From: Candidatus Fermentibacterales bacterium
Lineage (GTDB): Bacteria; Fermentibacterota; Fermentibacteria; Fermentibacterales; JAFGKQ01
Assembly (NCBI GenBank): GCA_016928495.1
Contig: JAFGKQ010000164.1
Coordinates: forward strand, 1 to 9,211
Direction of reading: 5' to 3'
Length of the DNA: 9,211 nucleotides
The notes below the pieces were generated by a model. It ran no database searches. It was not told where the DNA came from and saw only the letters and a list, made by a program, of their open reading frames with translations. Numbering within the stretch: the first letter of the stretch is position 1; every line of letters begins with the position of its first letter. Below are positions 1-8,902 of this stretch, one piece after another. The position numbers and the translations under genes are program-made.

Positions 1-487
1 CCACCTTGATCTTCTTGCCCTTGTCGTCGGTCTCGGTACGGAAGGCGAGCACCGTCATCATCGCCTGGAGCTCGTCCATGACGACCAGCATGGGCTTGAG
101 CTGCCCGGTGGCCCGGTACTCGTCGATGGAGGGGTCCCCGAGGGACTCGATAAGCTCCATCCGGCGACGATACTCCGGGAACAGGTAGCCGAGACACATG
201 TCCGTGAACTGCTCGTAGACGTCGCTGAGGGTCCAGTCGCACAGCCACGGCTCGTGGGCCAACTGAGAAGCGAATTCCCTGTATGCAAGTCGCTTCGGAT
301 CGAAGATCACAGCATCCCAGCCCTTCGCCAGGGACTGCCGCAGGAGGCTCTTGGCCAAGTAGGACTTGCCACTGCCAACGGGTGCTATGCAGCAAAGACC
401 GGGGTCCTTGGCGACGTCCCACCACATGTTCAAGCCCCTCTCGGACGAGGTGCCCAAGTACAGCCGGGTATCGAGAGGCCCGCCCAT
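1..487 (-). CDS. FtsK/SpoIIIE/TraB-like DNA translocase motor, C-terminal part cut by window edge
   Basis: The visible 162 residues are the start of a P-loop ATPase motor. A Walker A motif, APVGSGKS, lies at residues 35-42, and a Walker B-type strand with acidic pair, LVVMDE, at about 134-139. Between them sits IFDPK (61-65), as in FtsK/HerA motors, where the strand after the P-loop ends in D-P-K. FtsK/TraB/TcpA proteins are hexameric ATPases that pump double-stranded DNA through a membrane pore in division, conjugation or sporulation. There are only about 34 residues before Walker A, so this polypeptide has no membrane or beta domain of its own; the preceding gene supplies a plausible one. 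The start is ATG at 487, sharing one base with the upstream TGA (TGATG), which implies translational coupling. The C-terminal half, including any DNA-orienting gamma domain, is outside the window. A conjugative coupling ATPase is the main alternative. Confidence 0.85.
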   Translation of the reverse strand, partial: MGGPLDTRLYLGTSSERGLNMWWDVAKDPGLCCIAPVGSGKSYLAKSLLRQSLAKGWDAVIFDPKRLAYREFASQLAHEPWLCDWTLSDVYEQFTDMCLGYLFPEYRRRMELIESLGDPSIDEYRATGQLKPMLVVMDELQAMMTVLAFRTETDDKGKKIKV

Positions 488-1206
488 CACTTCCCCCCGT
501 AGCGAGCGTAGAGATCGCCCTCGGGGAACTGGGCGATACGGACATCCACGTGACGGGTCTCTCCCCTCGAGAAGTCCACGGAGGACGCAAAGCCATTGAG
601 TCCCAACTTGGACTGCAGGACGGCGAGCTTGCCGGCGAGCTTCTCAGAGTCCATCCCCGGCTGCGTGGTGTCGAACCGCAGACGGATCTCCTGGCCGAGC
701 GTCGGACGAATACCCGAGGGCGGCAGGGGCTGTCCCTCGGACTCGAGGATCCGGCGGACCGTATCCAGGTCGACCACGAAGGCCACCGACGGATAGACAC
801 GGCGGAACCGCACCAGGGGCTTGCCGTCGGTCCCGGTGGTCGTCTCCTTCTGCTCCACGACCCACTTCAAGTAGTCACAGGCCTCTTCTAGACACGCGTA
901 AGCTCCGGCATGCTCGGGGCTGGCAAGCAGCAGCCGCGTGACCGCCACCCGCTGACGGGTCTCCGGACGGGCCATCACCTGGCGATAGCCCCACACGGCC
1001 AGGGCGACGATACCGACGACAGCGAGCACGTCGAGGCCCTTGGCCCAGAGGGGCTGGTCGGTGAGCAGGAGCCAGCTCGGGATGAGGGCGACCAGGAAGG
1101 CCACGCCGGCAATCACACGGCCCGGCGTATAGGCCTGAGCCTTCACCCTGGCAGACCAGGTGCTCTCCGGATCCCACGGTATGACGATCTCCTCGATGCC
1201 GGCCAT
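487..1206 (-). CDS. Two-TM membrane protein, likely membrane/beta-domain half of a split FtsK/TraB-type translocase
   Basis: A 239-residue protein with two hydrophobic helices at about residues 30-49 and 57-77, joined by a short loop, then a soluble C-terminal region. Residues 168-224 (beginning RPTLGQEIRLRF, ending HVDVRI) read as strand, helix, strand, with the helix EKLAGKLAVLQSKLGL. This resembles the small alpha/beta domain that precedes the motor in FtsK-type proteins, and the next gene begins just where the motor would start. I infer that the pair forms one translocase encoded by two genes; no signature motif proves this. The ATG at 1206 is chosen because a GGGAGGGGG ribosome binding site lies just upstream, between the previous TAG stop and the ATG. 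Reading upstream of this start would run through the preceding gene. An unrelated membrane protein of a conjugation module is the alternative. Confidence 0.75.
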   Translation of the reverse strand: MAGIEEIVIPWDPESTWSARVKAQAYTPGRVIAGVAFLVALIPSWLLLTDQPLWAKGLDVLAVVGIVALAVWGYRQVMARPETRQRVAVTRLLLASPEHAGAYACLEEACDYLKWVVEQKETTTGTDGKPLVRFRRVYPSVAFVVDLDTVRRILESEGQPLPPSGIRPTLGQEIRLRFDTTQPGMDSEKLAGKLAVLQSKLGLNGFASSVDFSRGETRHVDVRIAQFPEGDLYARYGGK

Positions 1207-1451: not shown

Positions 1452-1762
1452 GGTCCCCCTCCTTCGATCATGCGTGCCCAACTGGACAGGTCGTTCTCCC
1501 GCAGGGCGGGATTCCCCTTGGTATGCGACAGCAGCACCAGGCCATGGGACCAGAGGGCGGCCAGCTCGAACTGCTGCTGGCGGGTGAGGTCCCGGCCCGC
1601 CCAGAGCAGATGGCAATGGAGCCCGTCCTCCAGGCTCGCATGCAGCCCCGCCTCATCCGGCTGCTCCCCCAGCAGGTTCCGGAAAGCCACCACGAAGCCG
1701 AGCAGATCCCGCTCAGCGGAATGGCGATCCCTCGGGGACTCGAAGACGAGGGTTCCGACCAT
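1427..1762 (-). CDS. Degenerate HUH-nuclease-like protein (HxH kept, catalytic Tyr position is Trp)
   Basis: A 111-residue protein that aligns by eye with the 98-residue HUH protein at 2351-2647. It has LHCHLLW at residues 48-54 (histidines 49 and 51), then LTRQQQFELAALWSHG, where W71 and G74 fall at exactly the same residue numbers as in the other protein. Where the other has VAAYLMK, this one has LSSWARM, so the nucleophilic Tyr is replaced by W95 and the motif Lys by Met. Motif 1 is also weak: TLVFES rather than FITLTT. I infer a paralogue that keeps the fold and perhaps metal binding but cannot cleave DNA through tyrosine. It could be a regulator, a dimer partner or a decaying copy. The start is ATG at 1762, in a TGATG junction with the upstream gene. 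Confidence 0.7.
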   Translation of the reverse strand: MVGTLVFESPRDRHSAERDLLGFVVAFRNLLGEQPDEAGLHASLEDGLHCHLLWAGRDLTRQQQFELAALWSHGLVLLSHTKGNPALRENDLSSWARMIEGGGPWERLVSR

Positions 1763-2127
1763 CACAGGATTCCATTCTCGAACTCGCCCAGTTCCGGCAC
1801 GCCACGAAAGGCCGCAGCCAGATCCCCGTCGATACCGACCACGGGCGAGGTGGTCCGCGTGGTCACCGGACCGTCTCCCAGGGGCTCCAGCACGAGCACC
1901 AGCGGCAGGCCGAACGCCGGCCGGGAGGCCGCCGGCAGGAGCAACCACTCGCCATCACGCCGCAGGTCGTGGGTGAACTCGACACGCCGCACGTAGCCGG
2001 GACAGAACTCGTAGACGGATCCCGTGGACGTCTCCACCGCAGCCAGCGGTACCTGCTCGGCGGCATCGAACTTCCGACGGGTGTCCTCGAGGACCTTCCG
2101 CAGGGCCTCCGCACGATCAGCGTTCAC
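1762..2127 (-). CDS. TGSVYEF-family small protein (copy A), function unknown
   Basis: A 121-residue protein with the core TGSVYEFCPGYVRRV at residues 35-49, followed by LRRDGEW (55-61) and VLEPLGDGPVTTRTTSPVV (79-97). The gene at 8606-8902 encodes the same blocks in the same order, so the two are clear paralogues. The pattern of a T/G-S-x-Y strand, an R-R-x turn and an L-R-x-D-G-x-W strand suggests a compact beta-rich fold of a kind met in phage and actinobacterial small proteins; no function is known to me. The start is GTG at 2127, backed by GAGGGGGATACC directly upstream. This gene follows a leader ORF and a promoter, and its ribosome site could be masked by RNA pairing (see the inverted repeat at 2132-2197). 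Copy A has an extra helical N-terminus and a longer C-terminus than copy B. Confidence 0.8.
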   Translation of the reverse strand: MNADRAEALRKVLEDTRRKFDAAEQVPLAAVETSTGSVYEFCPGYVRRVEFTHDLRRDGEWLLLPAASRPAFGLPLVLVLEPLGDGPVTTRTTSPVVGIDGDLAAAFRGVPELGEFENGIL

Positions 2128-2197: not shown

Positions 2198-2263
2198 GGG
2201 AATGCCCGGCAGAGAAGCCTGGGCACAGGCGAGCACGACAAAAGAGGAAGGCCGTGCCGCCAT
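2147..2263 (-). CDS. 38-aa leader ORF upstream of the TGSVYEF/translocase operon
   Basis: ATG at 2263 is preceded by GGGGAGGTGAGAAGTCCT, whose GGAGGTGA is a full match to the usual anti-Shine-Dalgarno sequence, about 40 bases downstream of the predicted transcription start. The ORF encodes 38 residues, beginning MAARPSSFVVLACAQ and rich in Pro, Ser and Trp near its end, and stops with TAG 19 bases before the GTG of the next gene. Third-position GC is lower than in neighbouring genes, so this need not be a conserved protein. I read it as a short leader whose translation may control the downstream gene by coupling. Another frame is also open across this stretch, ending in a GTGA overlap with the next gene, but it has no start codon after the promoter. 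It may simply be untranslated leader RNA. Confidence 0.45.
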   Translation of the reverse strand: MAARPSSFVVLACAQASLPGIPSPSAWRPSWPVPLGHP

Positions 2264-2308: not shown

Positions 2309-2336
2309 AAGATAGCCGGGGAGAGGCGATTGTCAA
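2309..2336 (-). promoter_or_regulatory. Sigma-70/sigma-A type promoter for the 2263-to-1 operon
   Basis: The minus strand reads TTGACA (2331-2336), a 16-base spacer, then TATCTT (2309-2314). The -35 box is the perfect consensus and the -10 box matches four of six positions. The stretch sits in one of only two gaps of any size in the window, directly after the HUH gene stop. It would start an mRNA near 2302, about 40 bases before the leader ATG. Confidence 0.7.
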
Positions 2337-2350
2337 GCATATTCCGGAGA

Positions 2351-2647
2351 TCAGCGGAGATTCGGATACTTCATCAGGTAGGCCGCCACATGACACTCAT
2401 CGCGAGCCCGAGCGATGTTGAGAAAGCCCCACGGCCACAGGTTCTGGAGCTCCTTCCGGGACAGGAACACCCAGTCCCGATACACCAGGTGAACGTGCAT
2501 CCGATCCGCCGGGCCCAGCTCGTAGAGCGGCTCCACAAGCTGCTTCCCATGCTGACGGAGGGCCTCGCAGAAGACGCCGACGGCCTCCTCGAGGACAAAA
2601 AGCTCAGTCGGCTCCCTCGTGGTCAGCGTGATGAAGACGGTACTCAT
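2351..2647 (-). CDS. Minimal HUH endonuclease (rolling-circle Rep-like)
   Basis: A 98-residue protein with the three classic rolling-circle Rep motifs in order. Motif 1 is FITLTT (residues 5-10), motif 2 is HVHLVY (51-56, the HUH metal site), and motif 3 is VAAYLMKY (87-94), with Y90 as likely nucleophile and K93 as the conserved lysine. Between motifs 2 and 3 is LQNLWPWGFLNI, matching the L-x-x-x-W-x-x-G-x-x-x-(I/V) segment of small Rep proteins. HUH enzymes nick single-stranded DNA and form a 5'-phosphotyrosine link to start rolling-circle replication, conjugation or transposition. The protein stops four residues after motif 3, so it has neither a helicase nor an extra DNA-binding domain. 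It starts at ATG 2647 in an ATGA overlap with the previous gene and is the last gene of the long operon. A relative lacking Tyr lies at 1427-1762. Whether it is active is not shown. Confidence 0.75.
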   Translation of the reverse strand: MSTVFITLTTREPTELFVLEEAVGVFCEALRQHGKQLVEPLYELGPADRMHVHLVYRDWVFLSRKELQNLWPWGFLNIARARDECHVAAYLMKYPNLR

Positions 2648-2826
2648 CGCTCCTCCTCCCTTACCTCGTCGACCTCGATACCCAGGGGGTAGGGCAGCCA
2701 GTCGAGCTCGTCCAGCTCCACCAGCGTCAGAGAGTTCGCCTGCCGAGTAGCCTCCCCGAGGTCCGGAGCCTCCAAGTACGCGACCGACTGCTCCCGCCGC
2801 AGGTACCATACGCGGTAGCGGCCCAT
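2644..2826 (-). CDS. DpnD/PcfM-like small protein, function unknown
   Basis: A 60-residue protein: MGRYRVWYLRREQSVAYLEA, then a helical LGEATRQANSL, then an acidic C-terminus. The layout of Y-x-V strand, second strand ending in EA, and a helix with an EA pair is that of the DpnD/PcfM-like family of small plasmid and phage proteins, whose role is not established. Similar proteins are at 3140-3325, 3325-3516, 3516-3722 and 5193-5387. The start is ATG at 2826 in a TGATG junction; a GTG one codon earlier is possible. The Glu-rich end (REEER) is partly dictated by the ribosome binding site of the HUH gene, which is read within it. Confidence 0.7.
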   Translation of the reverse strand: MGRYRVWYLRREQSVAYLEAPDLGEATRQANSLTLVELDELDWLPYPLGIEVDEVREEER

Positions 2827-3143
2827 CACAGCCCCCGAAGGTCACGGAACACCGTGAGGCCGTCTTCCGGGACAACCCGGAGGGGACACGGCTCGTAGCC
2901 GGCCTGACCGAGGGAGATGGCATCCAGCTCCACGGGCTCCCAGTCGTTCCGACGGACACCCCCGCGTACTGCCATACGGGCAGCCCAGCAGGGCCCACAG
3001 TCCTCTACGCAGCCCGCCTTGCGAAGCACGATACGGTAGCCATGCCCCTCCTCCTCGAACACCGGACAGCCGAGGCGATCGAGCTCGTCCACGGCCACCT
3101 GGAGCAGCAGGGTGGCCGCACAATCGCGGGATATTGACCTCAT
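2826..3143 (-). CDS. Small cysteine-cluster protein, function unknown
   Basis: A 105-residue protein. A predicted helix (residues 10-24, TLLLQVAVDELDRLG) is followed by YRIVLRKAG and a cysteine cluster, C45-x3-C49-x2-C52 (GCVEDCGPCWAARM). The cluster could bind a metal such as zinc or be a CxxC redox site. The remainder includes DWEPVELDAISLGQAGYEPCPLRVV. I recognise no family. The ATG at 3143 overlaps the TGA of the next upstream gene (ATGA) and has GGAGGTGCCGGC upstream. The gene ends with an RGL* sequence in which GGGGGCTG doubles as the ribosome site of the following gene, the same junction seen at 5877. Confidence 0.7.
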   Translation of the reverse strand: MRSISRDCAATLLLQVAVDELDRLGCPVFEEEGHGYRIVLRKAGCVEDCGPCWAARMAVRGGVRRNDWEPVELDAISLGQAGYEPCPLRVVPEDGLTVFRDLRGL

Positions 3144-3325
3144 GCCGGCACCTCCTCGACGTTGAAATGAACCTCCCCGTCCTGGTTCCGGACTCCGACC
3201 CAGAACCGCACGCCGGCAGCGTCCATGTCCGCCTGAACCAGCTCCTCGGCCTCCTGCTCGTCCTCGGCCTCGACCTCGACCGAGCCGTACGTCTCCTCGC
3301 AGATTTTCACTCGGTACTTGGGCAT
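3140..3325 (-). CDS. DpnD/PcfM-like small acidic protein
   Basis: A 61-residue, strongly acidic protein and the best match in the window to the DpnD/PcfM-like pattern: KYRVKICEETYGSVEVEAED, then EQEAEELVQADMDAAG. This gives two beta strands ending in VEAE followed by an EEA helix. The family is widespread on plasmids and phages; no biochemical role is established. It is the first of three such genes in direct succession (3140-3722), which suggests tandem duplication followed by divergence. The start is ATG at 3325, in a TGATG overlap with the previous stop, and the stop overlaps the next ATG (ATGA). Confidence 0.75.
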   Translation of the reverse strand: MPKYRVKICEETYGSVEVEAEDEQEAEELVQADMDAAGVRFWVGVRNQDGEVHFNVEEVPA

Positions 3326-3516
3326 CAGGACTCCTCCTCCTCGACACTGAGAATCTCGTAGTCACCGGTCATGTAGAACTTCTCGCCCTCGAAGTCGTCC
3401 TCGGACCACTGCCGGGCGAAGGCCTGCTCGTAGGCCTGCTCCCGGTTCTCGGCCTCGATCTCGACGGTCGTATCGAGCCTCGCAAACCCCCGCACCCACA
3501 CCTCGTAGGTCACCAT
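3325..3516 (-). CDS. DpnD/PcfM-like small acidic protein
   Basis: A 63-residue protein: TYEVWVRGFARLDTTVEIEA, then ENREQAYEQAFARQWSEDDF and a second beta-like part, FYMTGDYEILSVEEEES. The Y-x-V strand, the V-E-I-E-A strand end and the E-Q-A helix align with the neighbours on both sides. The acidic C-terminus EEEES is encoded by GAGGAGGAG, the ribosome binding site of the next gene, which starts in a TGATG overlap. The start is ATG at 3516. Function unknown. Confidence 0.75.
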   Translation of the reverse strand: MVTYEVWVRGFARLDTTVEIEAENREQAYEQAFARQWSEDDFEGEKFYMTGDYEILSVEEEES

Positions 3517-3722
3517 CAGCCCACTTCCTTCCCGGCCTCGTTGAGCACGACCTCATCCTCTTCATCGATCCAGTCCCCCGCCCAGGTGCTGACACGGAAC
3601 ACGCGACCCTCGTCCCAGAGACCGTGGTTCTGCAGCACCGTCTTGGCCTCCTCGGGCGAAGCCGCCTCCACCCGGAGTGAGACACGTTCCTTGCGGGTGG
3701 CACACACCGTATAGACCTGCAT
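3516..3722 (-). CDS. DpnD/PcfM-like small protein
   Basis: A 68-residue protein: VYTVCATRKERVSLRVEAAS, then PEEAKTVLQNHGLWDEGR and FRVSTWAGDWIDEEDEVVL. It keeps the Y-x-V strand, the VEA strand end and the PEEA helix start of the family, with a longer C-terminal beta part that resembles the GDYEI end of its neighbour. It is the third gene of the tandem trio. The start is ATG at 3722, sharing a base with the TGA of the 203-codon gene upstream and preceded by AGGAAGG. Function unknown. Confidence 0.7.
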   Translation of the reverse strand: MQVYTVCATRKERVSLRVEAASPEEAKTVLQNHGLWDEGRVFRVSTWAGDWIDEEDEVVLNEAGKEVG

Positions 3723-4333
3723 CAGGACACCTTCCTTTCTCCGATGAGCTCCCGGTCCAGGTCGATCGGGCGGGTCCAGAAGTCGGGCTCCGCCTGCTCT
3801 TCCAGCGTGTAGAGGGGCAGCAGGTGAGCCTCGGCGGCCGCCAGGCGTTCGGGAGTGACCCCGGTGCCCCAGAGACGGAGAGTCAGGTTGCCCCAGCGGA
3901 CCTCCCCGTGCTCGGCGAGCTTGCCCGCCAGCCACCGCAGGGAGCGGGAACGGGGGGCACGGGCAGTCCGCACGTCGTAGGTACTCAGGTCGCAGCACTC
4001 GGCCTGGATCGCGTAGAGCTGATACTGCTCCAGGGGCTCGAAGCCCTTGATGCCCTCCGGGACATCCGTGTAGGTCTTAATCCAGGCGTCGGGAAAGCGG
4101 ACCCGCTGACCCCGTTGAAGGGTATCGGCGACCTGCCGGCCGTCCAGGTCTGCGGGCATCCGGACAATCACGAGATCATCCAGGAAGGGCAGCTTGACCC
4201 AGACGCCCAGGGCCATGACATCCGGCCGCTGGGAGAGCGTCACCGCATCGTAGCGGCGGAGCGGAGCCACCGAGTACAGGGTGCCATCGCCGCTCCTGAG
4301 CCCGGCCCGGATGCTGTGGATACGATCGCCCAT
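3722..4333 (-). CDS. 203-aa protein of unknown function
   Basis: The largest gene of the middle operon. Its N-terminal half looks beta-rich (TLYSVAPLRRYDAVTL, VWVKLPFLDDLVIVRMP, VRFPDAWIKTYTDVP). A middle stretch, YQLYAIQAECCDLSTYDVRTA, is followed by a basic helix (RSRSLRWLAGKLAEHG). A final block, LRLWGTGVTPERLAAAEAHLLPLYTLEE, could be a helix-turn-helix-like or small alpha-helical unit. There are no catalytic motifs, TM segments or cysteine clusters beyond one CC pair. I do not recognise the family. The start is ATG at 4333, preceded by GGAGG and the recurrent TAGCC junction. It is two to three times longer than its neighbours, so it may be the effector that some of the small proteins serve; that is a guess. 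Confidence 0.75.
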   Translation of the reverse strand: MGDRIHSIRAGLRSGDGTLYSVAPLRRYDAVTLSQRPDVMALGVWVKLPFLDDLVIVRMPADLDGRQVADTLQRGQRVRFPDAWIKTYTDVPEGIKGFEPLEQYQLYAIQAECCDLSTYDVRTARAPRSRSLRWLAGKLAEHGEVRWGNLTLRLWGTGVTPERLAAAEAHLLPLYTLEEQAEPDFWTRPIDLDRELIGERKVS

Positions 4334-4335
4334 GG

Positions 4336-4629
4336 CTAGACCTCCTCTCGGAATTGCCGCTCGATCAGAACCTCGTTCTCGTAGGTCACCCGGTAGCCGG
4401 CATACTGCGGCTCCCCTTGGGGAATCCTCGGCAGGTGAAACTCGACGAGCTCCGTGAGACCCTCGACATCCAGCGAGGCCAGGACATCGACCATCACGGC
4501 ATCCTTCAGGGTCATCCGCTGCCAGAGCTCGTAGGGAAAGTCCGCCTCAATCTCGTCTTCCTCGCAGACGGGATAGACCACAAACTCGGCCGTGTCTCCG
4601 AACCACGGGTTCTCGGTGTAGGGCCCCAT
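4336..4629 (-). CDS. 97-aa acidic protein, function unknown
   Basis: The protein begins MGPYTENPWFGDTAEFVVYP. It is acidic, with a helical centre (KDAVMVDVLASLDVEGLTELVEF) and a closing beta stretch (GYRVTYENEVLIERQF). I see no known motif. ATG at 4629 is chosen over an upstream in-frame ATG because GGAGGAGGACTAGCC stands directly before it and the upstream gene ends in that TAG. It stops in TAG two bases before the next ATG. Confidence 0.7.
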   Translation of the reverse strand: MGPYTENPWFGDTAEFVVYPVCEEDEIEADFPYELWQRMTLKDAVMVDVLASLDVEGLTELVEFHLPRIPQGEPQYAGYRVTYENEVLIERQFREEV

Positions 4630-4631
4630 GG

Positions 4632-4877
4632 CTAGTCCTCCTCCGACCGGTTCCACTCGCCGATGATTCCATAGTCGCCGTCCCAGTACTTCCAGTGGGC
4701 AGCGGTGTCGAGCTGCTCCTCTTGGGCAGCCTCGAAGAGGGCCCGCGAGGAGATGTCGTACTCGTCAGCCTCAGCGTCATAGGGAAGCGGCAGGTCGCAC
4801 AGGTACTCCCCATCCTCCTGGACGTACCAGGTCCACGAGCCGGGCTCGTCGTCACGGTTCAGGAATGCCTCGTACAT
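4632..4877 (-). CDS. 81-aa acidic protein, function unknown
   Basis: The protein contains GSWTWYVQEDGEY (residues 13-25), a long acidic centre (PYDAEADEYDISS), a short helix (RALFEAAQEEQL) and a tail, HWKYWDGDYGIIGEW. The W-T-W-Y strand recalls the GWTWYAT strand of the DUF2958 protein at 6423-6749, but the rest does not align, so I treat it as unrelated. The start is ATG at 4877, one base after the previous TGA, with GAGGAG upstream. The EED end is encoded by the next gene's ribosome site. Confidence 0.7.
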   Translation of the reverse strand: MYEAFLNRDDEPGSWTWYVQEDGEYLCDLPLPYDAEADEYDISSRALFEAAQEEQLDTAAHWKYWDGDYGIIGEWNRSEED

Positions 4878-4878
4878 G

Positions 4879-5190
4879 TCAGGCTCCTCTCTGGGGGCAG
4901 TGGGCGATGGGGCAGCCCTCACAGGTCGCGGAGTGAAGCCCCGGACCGCCGTCATCGACCACCGCCATCTCGTAATCCGGATCCCGGAACACGCCGATCG
5001 ACCCCATCTCCTCCTCCTGCTGCCAGTCGATGACCTCCACCACGCACGCCCGCGAAGGCATCGCCTGCCAACCCAGGTAGGTCTCACAGGCCGGCAAGGC
5101 ATCCGAGTAAGTCCAGGCCACCACCGGGTAGCCGGCTTCCTCAAAGCGTCCGACCATGCGACCCATGCTCTCCCGCATGTCTTCGCCCAC
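4879..5190 (-). CDS. 103-aa protein with C-terminal cysteine motif, function unknown
   Basis: The N-terminus is helical (MRESMGRMVGRFEEAGYPVVAW), followed by ACETYLGWQAMPSRACVVEVIDW and a C-terminal TCEGCPIAHCPQRGA with CxxC plus a third Cys and a His, a possible metal-binding tail. No named family is recognised. The start is GTG at 5190: GGAGGAGTAGCC lies immediately upstream, exactly the junction found before several ATG starts here, and the GTG occupies the start slot. In-frame ATGs further in are not preceded by a ribosome site as good. Confidence 0.7.
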   Translation of the reverse strand: MGEDMRESMGRMVGRFEEAGYPVVAWTYSDALPACETYLGWQAMPSRACVVEVIDWQQEEEMGSIGVFRDPDYEMAVVDDGGPGLHSATCEGCPIAHCPQRGA

Positions 5191-5192
5191 GG

Positions 5193-5387
5193 CTACTCCT
5201 CCCCCTCGACCAGCACCGGCTCCTCAGGGAACTGGAAGACCATGTCGACCTTGAGCATCCGTTCGGTCGCCCGGTCGTAGCGGCCCGCCTCGATGAGCCC
5301 GGCGGTCTGGCGGGCATCCTCGGCTTCGACAATGGCCACCTTGTGCCGCTGGATCGTCTCCCACCAGCGGACCTCGTAGCGGGGCAT
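5193..5387 (-). CDS. DpnD/PcfM-like small protein
   Basis: A 64-residue protein: PRYEVRWWETIQRHKVAIVEAED, then ARQTAGLIEAGRYDRATERM and a closing strand region (VDMVFQFPEEPVLVEGEE). The Y-x-V strand and the IVEAED strand end match the trio at 3140-3722, although the helix lacks the EEA pair. The start is ATG at 5387, five bases after the previous TGA, with GGAG in the end of the upstream gene. It stops in TAG before a GTG start (TAGCC junction). Function unknown. Confidence 0.65.
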   Translation of the reverse strand: MPRYEVRWWETIQRHKVAIVEAEDARQTAGLIEAGRYDRATERMLKVDMVFQFPEEPVLVEGEE

Positions 5388-5392
5388 ACCGA

Positions 5393-5662
5393 TCAGCTCC
5401 TCTCGTTCCGGAAGAACTCCTTCGCCACACCCACAGCGATGTACGGCTCCCCGTACACGGTCTCGCCGCCGATCGTGAGCCGACCGTCGTTGAGGGCCGA
5501 AGCCAATGCCTCCGCACCCTGCCGACTCCCGCACACGAGCCCGTGGTACTGCGGCGTACAGGGACCATCCGGGCCTTCGTCGGCATGGACGAAGTAATCC
5601 ACCACCCGATCGAGCACCATCCAGTACCCCTCGTCGTAGCAGGCCTCGAACCGCTCCTCCAT
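5393..5662 (-). CDS. 89-aa protein, function unknown
   Basis: The protein begins MEERFEACYDEGYWMVLDRV. Its centre, LVCGSRQGAEALASALNDG, has the G/A-x-x-L-A-x-x-L-N helix often seen in small phage proteins that combine a two-strand hairpin with one helix. It ends in a hydrophobic strand (YIAVGVAKEFF). I cannot assign a named family. The start is ATG at 5662 in a TGATG overlap; a GTG one codon upstream is possible. Confidence 0.7.
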   Translation of the reverse strand: MEERFEACYDEGYWMVLDRVVDYFVHADEGPDGPCTPQYHGLVCGSRQGAEALASALNDGRLTIGGETVYGEPYIAVGVAKEFFRNERS

Positions 5663-5877
5663 CACGACCCCTCCTTCCGGACGATGTAGAGGCTGCCCGC
5701 ACGCATCTCCAAGACCAGGGACACGCCGGGGTCCATCAGGTGGGCAACTGCTTCGATGGCCGCTTCAACCTGCCCGTAGGCGGCCATGGCCTCCATGGGG
5801 TTGTCAGCGACAAGCTCTTCCGAGAGACCGCTCCGGTAGAAGCTCCACACGTCAGCACGCACGCTCTGCTTGGCCAT
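5662..5877 (-). CDS. 71-aa protein, function unknown
   Basis: The protein begins MAKQSVRADVWSFYRSGLSE, then a long helix (PMEAMAAYGQVEAAIEAVAHLM), and closes with two short strands (VSLVLEMRAGSLYIVRK). No motif is recognised. ATG at 5877 shares a base with the upstream TGA. The preceding GGGGGCTGTGATGG is identical to the junction at 2826, and the ribosome site encodes the last residues of the upstream protein. Confidence 0.65.
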   Translation of the reverse strand: MAKQSVRADVWSFYRSGLSEELVADNPMEAMAAYGQVEAAIEAVAHLMDPGVSLVLEMRAGSLYIVRKEGS

Positions 5878-6176
5878 CACAGCCCCCTTTCCCGCCAGTA
5901 GAGAGCCAGACCGTCCCAGTCGATGTGGTCGGTGCCCTCACGCAGGAGGGTCGTGCGGAGAGGACCGTCGTCGGGCTCACAAGACGCGAGCTCCTCGATA
6001 CGCTCCCGCACGGCCTCGGCACCCTCTGCCCAGGGACGCCTGAACGAACCCATCCAGGCGTCCGACGGACCCTTGACGCCCGCCAGGAGCTCCCGCAGCT
6101 CCTCCTCAGCGTCACCCCAGATGATGTTCGTGAGGTTCCAGGTGCCCCAGTTCGTGAATCCGTCGTAGTCGGCCAT
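5877..6176 (-). CDS. NWGT/NYETW-type phage-plasmid small protein (copy A)
   Basis: A 99-residue protein with FTNWGTWNLTNIIW at residues 7-20, EEELRELLAG at 24-33, ERIEEL in the centre and HIDWDGLA at 84-91. The arrangement, an N-terminal N-(W/Y)-x-T-W-N signature and a C-terminal (V/I)-(D/N)-W-x-x-(I/L)-A, is that of a family common on phages and plasmids whose best-known members read NYETW-N. I believe this is DUF7249, though the name is from memory. Its function is unknown. A second copy lies at 7338-7613. The start is ATG at 6176 with AGGAGGCGACG upstream, nine bases after the previous TAG. Confidence 0.75.
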   Translation of the reverse strand: MADYDGFTNWGTWNLTNIIWGDAEEELRELLAGVKGPSDAWMGSFRRPWAEGAEAVRERIEELASCEPDDGPLRTTLLREGTDHIDWDGLALYWRERGL

Positions 6177-6185
6177 CGTCGCCTC

Positions 6186-6419
6186 CTAGTTCTCATAGCC
6201 GGCAGTGCCGACCCGGTTGCCGTTGATGTCATGGAGAACCACCGAGCAGTCGAGAGCCTCGGCGTCGGTCTCGAATAGACGCTGCTCCACCGCGTCAGCC
6301 GCCTCCCGCAGGAGCCTCGCGACTTCCCATCCCGATCGAACCTCCGACCCGCTCTCGTTGTAGGCGGCGTCATCCCAGAAACTCGCGTTCTCGACCCGCA
6401 TCCTCACCACGAAGTCCAT
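6186..6419 (-). CDS. 77-aa acidic protein, function unknown
   Basis: The protein starts MDFVVRMRVENASFWDDAAY. The centre is a helix (GWEVARLLREAADAVEQRL), and the end is a beta hairpin (LDCSVVLHDINGNRVGTAGYEN) with a D-x-N-G-N turn. Strand, helix and hairpin fit a small alpha/beta fold of the kind carried by phages, but no family is recognised. The start is ATG at 6419, immediately behind the upstream TAG (TAGGCC-ATG) and GGAGG. Confidence 0.7.
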   Translation of the reverse strand: MDFVVRMRVENASFWDDAAYNESGSEVRSGWEVARLLREAADAVEQRLFETDAEALDCSVVLHDINGNRVGTAGYEN

Positions 6420-6422
6420 GGC

Positions 6423-6749
6423 CTAGAACCTCCCTAGCTCGCTGAGCCGACAAGGCGTGAAATACAAGTCCCGCTCGATACCGATGCCCGGCATGCGGAT
6501 GGGCTTGAGCATGTCGGAGGCGTACCAGGAGCCCCACTCGGCCTCGAAGCCCTCGACGTAGCCCTCGAAGATGCCGTTGGCCTCGTCGTAGGCCGTGGCG
6601 TACCAGGTCCAACCCGTCGCGTAGGGATCGAAGAACTTGGCGAACAACACCGGATCCTCGTCGCGGAAGGAAGCGAAACACCAGGCTGTCGTGAGGGCCC
6701 TGTACTCCTTCGTGCTCAGCAAGGGCGTACCGTTCTGGAGCCGCTCCAT
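6423..6749 (-). CDS. DUF2958 domain protein
   Basis: A 108-residue protein recognisable as DUF2958 along nearly its whole length: LSTKEYRAL near the start, FAKFFDPYATGWTWYATAYD (residues 36-55), IFEGYVEGFEAEWGSWYASDM (60-80), and GIGIERDLYFTPCRLSEL near the end. DUF2958 proteins are about 100-120 residues, are frequent on conjugative plasmids, genomic islands and prophages, and have no assigned biochemical role. This copy is full length. The start is ATG at 6749 with GGGAGGGGGTAGCG upstream. Its presence supports the view that the window is a mobile element. Confidence 0.85.
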   Translation of the reverse strand: MERLQNGTPLLSTKEYRALTTAWCFASFRDEDPVLFAKFFDPYATGWTWYATAYDEANGIFEGYVEGFEAEWGSWYASDMLKPIRMPGIGIERDLYFTPCRLSELGRF

Positions 6750-6751
6750 CG

Positions 6752-6988
6752 CTACCCCCTCCCGTCGAAGCGGCCGAGCATCTCCAGCCGCCAATCCTCG
6801 TCCCGCACTTCCCAGGACACGCCGGCGAGATGGTGCATGCGGCCCCAGTCCTCGATGCACTCCCGGAGGGACTTGGAGGACGGACAAGCGAAGCCACCGC
6901 CGACGTAATACTCGCCCTCGACCTCATCCAGGTACTGGACCTCCCAGTAGCCTTCACCACGGGACACGAAAACCACCTGAGCGAGCAT
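6752..6988 (-). CDS. 78-aa protein, function unknown
   Basis: The protein begins MLAQVVFVSRGEGYWEVQYL, followed by YYVGGGFACPSSKSLRECIEDWG and an acidic, Trp-containing end (VSWEVRDEDWRLEM). The run of two N-terminal strands, a glycine turn and a short helix with S-x-x-E-C-I faintly recalls HicB-like folds, but the diagnostic residues are not there and no HicA partner is adjacent, so I do not assign it. The start is ATG at 6988 in a TAGCC-ATG junction preceded by GGAGG. Confidence 0.65.
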   Translation of the reverse strand: MLAQVVFVSRGEGYWEVQYLDEVEGEYYVGGGFACPSSKSLRECIEDWGRMHHLAGVSWEVRDEDWRLEMLGRFDGRG

Positions 6989-6990
6989 GG

Positions 6991-7335
6991 CTAGGCCTCC
7001 CCAAACGAACCGGGAATCTCCCCACTCACGACGTAGCCATCGGAGGTGAAGCACCGATGAAGAGGCGAGACCCCCTCGAGGACCACCTGCCGTTGATGAC
7101 CGCTCGGCGTCGCCTTGAAGCGTTCCGGATGGACGGTCGCCTCGAACTTCGCCAGGGCGTTCTCCATGCGGTTGAACGCGTGCTCCCGAGGACACCGGGA
7201 GCATGGCCCCGCGAAGACACACCGCCTGTCCAATCGAAGCCTCGGGCCGCCGAACCCGAACCTCACGGACTCCGTGACCCACAGGCACGTAATCTCCTCG
7301 TAGGGCGGATTCCCGACTTTCGATGGATGGCCCAT
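6991..7335 (-). CDS. 114-aa cysteine-cluster protein, function unknown
   Basis: The centre holds RRCVFAGPCSRCPREHAFNRMENALAKFEATVHP. C39, C45 and C48 with a following His (C-x5-C-x2-C-x3-H) could bind zinc, and the segment after it is a helix. C17 and C95 are isolated. The first 37 residues are beta-like and basic (ITCLWVTESVRFGFGGPRLRL). I recognise no family. The start is ATG at 7335 with GGAGGAGTAGTC directly upstream. A nucleic-acid-binding zinc finger is a reasonable guess from the cysteines and basic residues, but only a guess. Confidence 0.65.
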   Translation of the reverse strand: MGHPSKVGNPPYEEITCLWVTESVRFGFGGPRLRLDRRCVFAGPCSRCPREHAFNRMENALAKFEATVHPERFKATPSGHQRQVVLEGVSPLHRCFTSDGYVVSGEIPGSFGEA

Positions 7336-7337
7336 GA

Positions 7338-7613
7338 CTACTCCTCCCAGCCCATGACCTCGTTGGCGAGGGCAACCCAGTCGATGTTCATGCGACCGTC
7401 TTCCAGGTAGGCCTCGGTGAAGGGACGCTCGCGAAGCTCGGGATCCTTCTCGTCCTCGATCCGCTCGTCCACCCAGTCCCGAAGAACCCGATCGGCATCG
7501 ACACGCGTGGTACAGCCGGCGAGGAGGTCCCGTACCTCGTCCTCGTAGAACTCGTCAGCGAGCAGGTCGGAGATCTGCTTGGTGCCCCAGTTCGCGTAGC
7601 CCATGTAGCCCAA
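7338..7613 (-). CDS. NWGT/NYETW-type phage-plasmid small protein (copy B)
   Basis: A 91-residue protein paralogous to 5877-6176: YANWGTKQISDLLADE (residues 6-21), EVRDLLAG (26-33), a middle acidic helix (DWVDERIEDEKDPELR) and MNIDWVALANE (75-85). It keeps NWGT but lacks the W-N that follows in copy A. The start is taken as TTG at 7613 because it stands in the TAGCC-start slot found elsewhere (AGGTGAGTAGCC then TTG). The in-frame ATG at 7604 would shorten the protein by three residues. The C-terminal WEE is encoded by the next ribosome site. Confidence 0.75.
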   Translation of the reverse strand: MGYMGYANWGTKQISDLLADEFYEDEVRDLLAGCTTRVDADRVLRDWVDERIEDEKDPELRERPFTEAYLEDGRMNIDWVALANEVMGWEE

Positions 7614-7615
7614 GG

Positions 7616-7834
7616 CTACTCACCTGCCTTCTCGACGGAGAGACGGAGGGTACGCACCGCCAGGGCAGCGGCCCCGGCGAGGAGGACCAGGCCCGTGAGG
7701 ACCGCGAAGGCAGGACGCCCGGCGGAGACGGCCGCGGAGGCCACGAGGGCCATGACGAACAGGTAGCAGACGCCCTTCCAGGGAACCGGACCCCCCGATG
7801 AAGCCACGCGGTTGAGACGCTCGACCGGTGCCAT
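7616..7834 (-). CDS. Small two-TM membrane protein, first gene of the long operon
   Basis: A 72-residue protein with a short basic N-terminus (PVERLNRVASS), hydrophobic helices at about residues 21-39 and 41-62 separated by a GRP turn, and a short charged tail (RLSVEKAGE). This is a hairpin membrane protein with both ends probably cytoplasmic. Function unknown; on mobile elements such proteins serve in entry exclusion, holins or conjugation, but nothing here decides. ATG at 7834 lies 11 bases from GGAGG; GTG at 7840 (5 bases) is an equally good start and adds two residues. It is the first gene after the promoter at 7874-7901. Confidence 0.7.
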   Translation of the reverse strand: MAPVERLNRVASSGGPVPWKGVCYLFVMALVASAAVSAGRPAFAVLTGLVLLAGAAALAVRTLRLSVEKAGE

Positions 7835-7873
7835 GAACACCACTTCCTCCCCGCCGTCCGATAAGGCTGCCTA

Positions 7874-7901
7874 GGTATAGCCGCGGAGCCGAATTCCGCA
7901 A
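7874..7901 (-). promoter_or_regulatory. Probable promoter of the 20-gene middle operon
   Basis: The minus strand reads TTGCGG (7896-7901), a 16-base spacer, then TATACC (7874-7879). Both boxes keep the most conserved bases (TTG and TATA). The site lies in a non-coding gap and would start RNA near 7867, about 20-30 bases before the first start codon, leaving room for the GGGGAGG ribosome site. It is weaker than the promoter at 2309-2336. Confidence 0.5.
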
Positions 7902-7951
7902 GGATCGACACGGAGATTTCTCGAAGAACTTCCTCCGGCGGTCGCCGCATT

Positions 7952-7985
7952 CCCGGCCCCTACTCGAGTAGTCGAGGGAACCGGG
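7952..7985 (-). other. GC-rich hairpin in the gap between operons
   Basis: On the minus strand CCCGG, CCC and CTAC pair with GTAG, GGG and CCGGG around a TCGA loop, with small bulges on one side. The core CTACTCGAGTAG (7960-7971) is a perfect 12-base palindrome. It sits about 40 bases after the stop at 8024 and before the promoter at 7874-7901. It could end the upstream transcript (there is no T-run, so not a canonical intrinsic terminator) or be a protein-binding site for an element regulator. Confidence 0.4.
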
Positions 7986-8023
7986 CCGTCTTCAAGGAAA
8001 TCAGCGGAAGAATCTCGGGGCGT

Positions 8024-8605: not shown

Positions 8606-8902
8606 CTACCCCTCCTTCGGGACCCACTCGATGGACACGACGGCGGTGGTGCGGCGTTCGGTGTGGGGGCCCTCGCCGAGGGGCTCCAGGAAGAGCACCA
8701 TCGGGCGGCCCTTGAAAGGCACGGTGCCATCGGAGACGGAGAGCCAGTCCCCGTCCCGGCGGAGAGGCCCCTCGGGGTTCACCCGACGGACGCGATCGGG
8801 CAGGAACTCGTAGACGGAGCCCGTCTCGGTCTCGACCCGCATGAGGTCGCCGTCCGCGGAAGCGGCCGCGAGGGCGGTCTGGAACTGGTCCCAGGTGGAC
8901 AT
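8606..8902 (-). CDS. TGSVYEF-family small protein (copy B), function unknown
   Basis: A 98-residue protein with TGSVYEFLPDRVRRV at residues 27-41, LRRDGDWLSV at 47-56, FKGRPMVLFLEPLGEGP at 63-79 and RRTTAVVSIEW at 83-93. Every block recurs in the gene at 1762-2127, giving the clearest paralogous pair in the window. The fold is probably all-beta after an N-terminal helix (WDQFQTALAAA). The start is ATG at 8902 in a TGATG junction. The two copies lie near opposite ends of the window, in different operons. Confidence 0.8.
   Translation of the reverse strand: MSTWDQFQTALAAASADGDLMRVETETGSVYEFLPDRVRRVNPEGPLRRDGDWLSVSDGTVPFKGRPMVLFLEPLGEGPHTERRTTAVVSIEWVPKEG

What the first reader, a model, noticed from the sequence alone, without database searches (positions are those of the whole stretch)
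2351..2647. A 98-residue protein with a complete set of HUH rolling-circle Rep motifs
FITLTT, HVHLVY and VAAYLMKY occur in order at residues 5, 51 and 87, matching the classic motif 1, motif 2 (HUH) and motif 3 (u-x-x-Y-u-x-K) of rolling-circle initiators. The protein ends four residues after motif 3. Most Reps carry a helicase or further DNA-binding domain, so a lone nuclease domain at the end of a long operon of tiny genes, next to a DNA-pump operon, is unusual. It could be the nickase of the element's replication or transfer, or a nuclease used by an accessory system.
Basis: partly seen in the sequence, partly recalled or inferred. Interest (0 to 1): 0.8.

Follow-up and report, generated by a model that had tools for sequence, protein, structure and literature searches.

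The report
Smallest-form rolling-circle DNA-nicking protein
A mobile DNA element found in a little-studied bacterium carries a 98-residue protein that is almost certainly a rolling-circle (HUH) DNA-nicking enzyme of a known family, pared down to the bare catalytic domain that its sampled relatives carry inside proteins two to four times longer.

Summary
In detail: window 2351-2647, minus strand, encodes 98 aa with FITLT (5), HVH (51-53) and YLMKY (90-94), plus the E43 and LWxxGF positions of one Rep family. Pfam REP_ORF2-G2P (PF23343) matches residues 4-94 above its curated cut-off. An AlphaFold2 model gives the HUH core topology; among solved structures Foldseek and VIA-align 2 place the lone-domain rudivirus protein SIRV1 ORF119 third, and viral-library matches include microvirus and ORF2/G2P initiators. 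The protein is truly short: codon-position GC shows no coding continuation upstream in frame or downstream in any frame. In 25 relatives whose three motifs could be located, 85-145 residues follow motif 3; here 4 do. Next door is an operon with an FtsK-like motor whose best solved relative is the conjugative coupling protein TcpA; this kind of Rep with TcpA is a published pairing in streptococcal mobilizable elements. Best explanation: the rolling-circle initiator and/or relaxase of a mobile element in a bacterial MAG. The family and pairing are known; the stripped, lone-domain form is the new part. Activity, origin and element type are not shown.

The parts
2351..2647 (-). 98-aa lone HUH endonuclease domain, REP_ORF2-G2P family; last gene of the upstream operon
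2618..2635 (-). motif 1, F5-ITLTT
   Evidence: sequence; F5, T7, L8, T9 invariant in alignment A3
2489..2497 (-). motif 2, H51-V-H53
   Evidence: sequence; both His invariant in A1, A3 and A4
2366..2389 (-). motif 3, V87-AAY90-LMK93-Y94
   Evidence: sequence; both Tyr positions occupied by Tyr in the relatives aligned by eye
2228..2261 (-). hairpin with an 11-nt pyrimidine-rich loop, about 90 nt downstream of the gene; candidate nick site/origin, or leader hairpin of the next operon (speculative)
   Evidence: 226-nt gap z -2.64; coordinates; hairpin alone z -3.67, picked after the fact
2309..2336 (-). promoter-like site TTGACA-16-TATCTT just after the rep stop, reading into the FtsK-like operon
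   Evidence: the only promoter-like site; 0.7 expected by chance
2644..7834 (-). tightly packed operon of about 20 small genes (about 60-200 aa), nearly all without a known family, ending in the HUH gene
487..1206 (-). 239-aa protein with two hydrophobic, probably membrane-spanning stretches (by eye), encoded just before the motor gene; no Pfam family
   Evidence: sequence
2..490 (-). FtsK/TcpA-like motor, 163 aa, cut by the contig end; Walker A and B present
   Evidence: TcpA 6o1w, E 5e-5 over residues 21-155; phrog_1358 FtsK/SpoIIIE-like, E 2.4e-4

Best explanation
The protein is a minimal HUH endonuclease of the REP_ORF2-G2P (Microviridae/small-plasmid Rep) family, and it is the rolling-circle initiator and/or relaxase of the mobile element on this contig. 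Shown by sequence and model: motifs, family, fold, true length and neighbourhood. Inferred: H51 and H53 hold a metal ion; Y90 (and perhaps Y94, spaced as in two-tyrosine initiators) attacks one strand at an origin on the element and forms a 5'-phosphotyrosine link; the free 3'-OH primes rolling-circle synthesis by host enzymes with a host helicase, and/or the bound strand is passed to the TcpA/FtsK-like motor for transfer; a second transesterification re-joins the strand. Because the usual N- and C-terminal parts are missing, origin recognition must come from the domain itself, perhaps as a dimer, or from a partner protein, perhaps one of the small co-operonic proteins.
For: Family above curated cut-off and PHROG hit. 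F5, T7, L8, T9, E43, H51, H53, L67, L70, W71, G74 and F75 invariant across microviral and Firmicutes relatives. Model topology b-a-b-b-a-b-a with H51/H53 on strand 50-56 and Y90 on the last helix. SIRV1 ORF119 (2x3g) at TM 0.71 and Z 9.9; microvirus and ORF2/G2P initiators in the viral library. True 98 aa, coding-like base pattern. Motor relative TcpA and published PHA00330 + TcpA pairing in IMEs (PMC5357655, PMC5704250); a Rep of this kind and an FtsK-domain protein also share Fusobacterium plasmid p40A2.
Against: No origin or nick site is identified. No close homologue was found in viral contigs or genome contigs, nor in the 42 genomes of the phylum, so selection on the gene cannot be measured. 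The C-terminal helix with Y90 has low confidence (pLDDT about 60), and ferredoxin-like ribosomal S6 folds score as high as SIRV1 Rep in the PDB comparison. The contig shows no recognised integrase, mating-pore gene or closed circle. Every measured relative is longer, so a 98-aa form may have lost initiator function.
Confidence: 0.75

Rival explanations
1. It is an active HUH nuclease but serves an accessory or anti-competitor task (cutting other replicons, DNA processing) while another protein outside the contig replicates and transfers the element.
For: It sits last in a long operon of small unknown proteins; it lacks the extra domains of replicating relatives; the contig is incomplete (no end overlap; motor cut by the end).
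Against: No defence or anti-defence family was recognised among the neighbours scanned with Pfam; the FtsK/TcpA-like operon next door fits a transfer role.
Confidence: 0.13
2. It is a decayed or split Rep: the catalytic domain remains after loss of the flanking parts and is no longer an initiator.
For: All 25 measured relatives carry 85-145 residues after motif 3.
Against: Every catalytic position is intact; start overlaps the upstream stop; coding-type GC pattern; no trace of the missing C-terminal part in any frame downstream, where a promoter-like site begins.
Confidence: 0.1
3. It is a chance ferredoxin-like small protein with motif look-alikes.
For: Ribosomal S6 and other ferredoxin-like folds score as high in the PDB comparison.
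Against: Pfam match over the curated cut-off across the whole domain and shared E43 and LWxxGF positions besides the three motifs.
Confidence: 0.02

Closest known systems
REP_ORF2-G2P domain proteins (PF23343) of microviruses, small plasmids and Firmicutes integrative elements
   Same: whole catalytic domain, FxTLT, E, HxH, LWxxGF, YxxKY
   Different: relatives measured have 85-145 residues after motif 3 and motif 1 at open-frame residue 59 or later; here 4 residues and residue 5
SIRV1 ORF119 Rep (PDB 2x3g), rudiviruses of archaea
   Same: small lone HUH domain (119 aa by its name; 116 residues in the entry), closest solved HUH fold found (Z 9.9, 2.6 A over 91 residues); nicking and joining shown in vitro according to PMC6668415
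   Different: 16% identity; archaeal linear virus; a separate Rep cluster in PMC6668415
Streptococcal IMEs with Rel_PHA00330 relaxase and TcpA coupling protein
   Same: microvirus-type Rep together with an FtsK/TcpA-like motor (PMC5357655, PMC5704250)
   Different: there tcpA lies upstream of the relaxase gene and an integrase is present; here the HUH gene precedes the motor operon and no integrase is recognised on the contig
Actinobacterial AICEs (pSAM2 type): RepSA plus FtsK-like Tra
   Same: rolling-circle initiator plus FtsK-like motor (PMC3218068)
   Different: no RepSA-length initiator or integrase seen here; the motor's best solved relative is TcpA

Membership tests
HUH endonuclease superfamily (rolling-circle Rep) | motif 1, HUH motif and catalytic Tyr motif in order and spacing | tested here: met
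HUH endonuclease superfamily (rolling-circle Rep) | HUH fold with the His pair on a central strand and Tyr on a following helix | tested here: inconclusive
   Model topology fits and SIRV1 Rep is among the top matches, but ferredoxin-like folds score equally and the Tyr helix has pLDDT about 60; distances between His and Tyr not measured
HUH endonuclease superfamily (rolling-circle Rep) | metal-dependent nicking through a covalent Tyr-DNA link | not testable with these tools
   needs purified protein
REP_ORF2-G2P (PF23343) | score over the curated Pfam cut-off along the domain | tested here: met
   35.2 bits against 27.8, profile positions 2-94 of 99
REP_ORF2-G2P (PF23343) | usual (not defining) setting: inside a protein of about 240-400 aa | tested here: not met
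   98 aa; 25 relatives measured. A common feature of the family, not one that defines it
IME with PHA00330 relaxase and TcpA | microvirus-type Rep plus TcpA-like coupling protein | tested here: met
   the motor is cut by the contig end and its TcpA match is modest (E 5e-5)
IME with PHA00330 relaxase and TcpA | integrase and attachment sites | tested here: inconclusive
   none among the proteins scanned, but the contig is incomplete and not every small gene was scanned
SIRV1-type rudiviral Rep | sequence similarity to rudiviral Reps | tested here: not met
   no sequence match to 2x3g in the PDB set; 16% identity by structure only

The most novel reading that the evidence does not exclude
Some bacterial mobile elements use a catalytic-domain-only HUH protein of about 98 residues as complete initiator or relaxase, with DNA recognition supplied by separate small proteins of the same operon: a split Rep, and one of the smallest natural HUH enzymes.
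Probability: 0.3. Interest if true: 0.55.

Novelty: new variant of a known kind. Interest (0 to 1): 0.37.

Why it matters
It would show how little of a Rep is needed to start rolling-circle replication or transfer, extend the microvirus-type Rep plus TcpA pairing beyond Firmicutes to an under-studied bacterial phylum, and offer a very small HUH domain for covalent protein-DNA tagging.

Tried and rejected
Longer protein by an upstream start: the in-frame stretch 2648-2998 has a non-coding GC pattern and overlaps two genes. Frameshifted C-terminal part: none in any frame. Close relatives: one weak viral hit, none in genome contigs by single protein, none in the 42 genomes of the phylum. Scans with the Fusobacterium and Staphylococcus Reps found nothing. 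The Synechococcus phage S-B68 hit (E 0.7) lies on the strand opposite to the annotated gene and is taken as chance. Open-frame lengths (0 of 33 full-domain matches under 225 codons) were not used as proof, since the window's own open frame is 217 by the same measure; residues after motif 3 were measured instead. Circularity: no end overlap. The other intergenic gap, 7835-8023, folds no better than shuffles. A shared CCGCTGAT-like word at both gap starts (3 mismatches) was not pursued. No HUH fold in the PDB comparison stood clear of ferredoxin-like folds.

Full report
What is there. The window is a whole 9,211-base contig (C257) of a 2.31-Mb, 81% complete bacterial MAG in 337 contigs (bacterial 16S on C316). 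The phylum holds only 42 sampled genomes. GC of the contig is 65.5% against 63.7-65.2% in nine other contigs, and its tetranucleotide correlation with them (0.947) lies within their own range of 0.934-0.982, so nothing suggests a wrong bin, though it has no matching element elsewhere in the MAG or phylum by the three proteins searched. The genes described here are all on the minus strand.

The observation. The 98-aa reading frame at 2351-2647 (minus) has exactly the motifs named. Pfam PF23343 covers residues 4-94 at E 1.6e-8, above its curated cut-off; PHROG 3584, a replication initiation protein, agrees. By tblastn the relatives are replication initiators of microviruses, plasmid Reps and an integrative element with an adjacent integrase. 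Alignments with them keep T7, L8, T9, F26, E43, H51, H53, L67, L70, W71, G74 and F75 throughout. MAFFT shifts motif 3 by four residues in some rows because the motif holds two tyrosines; read by eye, Y90 and Y94 are Tyr in the window protein, L002, L011, L012, L013, L021 and L029.

Real length. The start codon overlaps the stop of the upstream gene. Base composition by codon position is coding-like inside the gene, not in the in-frame stretch upstream and not in any frame downstream. In 25 relatives whose three motifs could be located (some near-identical), motif 1 starts at open-frame residue 59-166 and 85-145 residues follow the last tyrosine; in the window these are 5 and 4. The N-terminal figures are measured from the preceding stop, so they are upper limits; the C-terminal ones are exact. 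The lone-domain form is therefore real and unusual in this sample. The sample was chosen by similarity and is not a census.

Fold. AlphaFold2 on 15 sequences gave mean pLDDT 78 and pTM 0.70, with strand-helix-strand-strand-helix-strand-helix, H51/H53 on the third strand and Y90 in the last helix, where confidence falls to 60. Foldseek's third PDB match is SIRV1 ORF119 (2x3g; TM 0.71), and VIA-align 2 gives it Z 9.9 at 2.6 A over 91 residues, level with ribosomal S6 proteins, which share the ferredoxin-like core. The viral library's leading matches are mostly proteins of 170-470 aa; most of those that bear names are microvirus replication initiators and ORF2/G2P proteins. Fold alone does not settle membership; fold plus motifs plus Pfam does.

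Neighbourhood. The gene ends an operon of about 20 small genes (2644-7834). After it come a promoter-like site, a gap with more folding than shuffles (z -2.64) including a hairpin at 2228-2261, and then an operon with a probable membrane protein and a motor cut by the contig end. The motor's best solved relative is annotated 'DNA translocase coupling protein' (6o1w; E 5e-5 over residues 21-155); that this is TcpA of conjugative plasmid pCW3 is my own knowledge. One small protein has a sub-threshold DpnD/PcfM match.

How it most likely works. In streptococcal IMEs, PHA00330-type relaxases (the microvirus initiator family; the relative L013 is annotated 'similar to PHA00330') occur with TcpA in 19 of 21 cases, and RCR-type relaxases in ICEBs1 and Tn916 both replicate and transfer their element (PMC5357655, PMC5704250). 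Actinobacterial AICEs pair a rolling-circle Rep with an FtsK-like Tra (PMC3218068). The same logic fits here: nick by tyrosine at an origin, replicate by rolling circle and/or hand the strand to the motor, re-join. No step has been shown for this protein; the hairpin downstream is only a candidate origin, chosen after inspection.

What is new. Family and pairing are known. The catalytic-domain-only form is not usual in the family; its nearest precedent in size is the archaeal SIRV1 Rep, whose nicking and joining activities were confirmed (PMC6668415). I file it as a member of PF23343 and a new variant by architecture.

Noticed in passing
window 1762-2124 and 8606-8902 (minus): Two related small proteins (TGSVYEF..VRRV..LRRDG..L..P..LVLEPLG) at the two ends of the window, with a 72% DNA repeat at 1982-2038 and 8781-8837: a duplicated family of unknown function.
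   Followed up: no
window 5877-6176 and 7338-7613 (minus): Two paralogous proteins with a NWGTWNL/NWGTKQI start (37% identical), faintly like DUF7249 (below cut-off).
   Followed up: partly
window 2-1206 (minus): The FtsK/TcpA-like system looks split: a probable membrane protein in one gene and the motor domain in the next.
   Followed up: partly
window 3140-3325 and 3325-3516 (minus): Two adjacent small proteins with sub-threshold DpnD/PcfM matches.
   Followed up: no
window 2346-2360 and 7996-8010 (minus): A 15-base word (CTTCCGCTGATTTCC, 3 mismatches) lies at the start of both long intergenic gaps; 3 of 200 shuffles had two or more matches. Could be a regulatory site or chance.
   Followed up: partly
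L011 (Fusobacterium polymorphum plasmid p40A2): A 5-kb plasmid with an FtsK-domain protein, a Txe/YoeB toxin gene and a REP_ORF2-G2P-like Rep at 3693-4586 annotated only as hypothetical protein.
   Followed up: no
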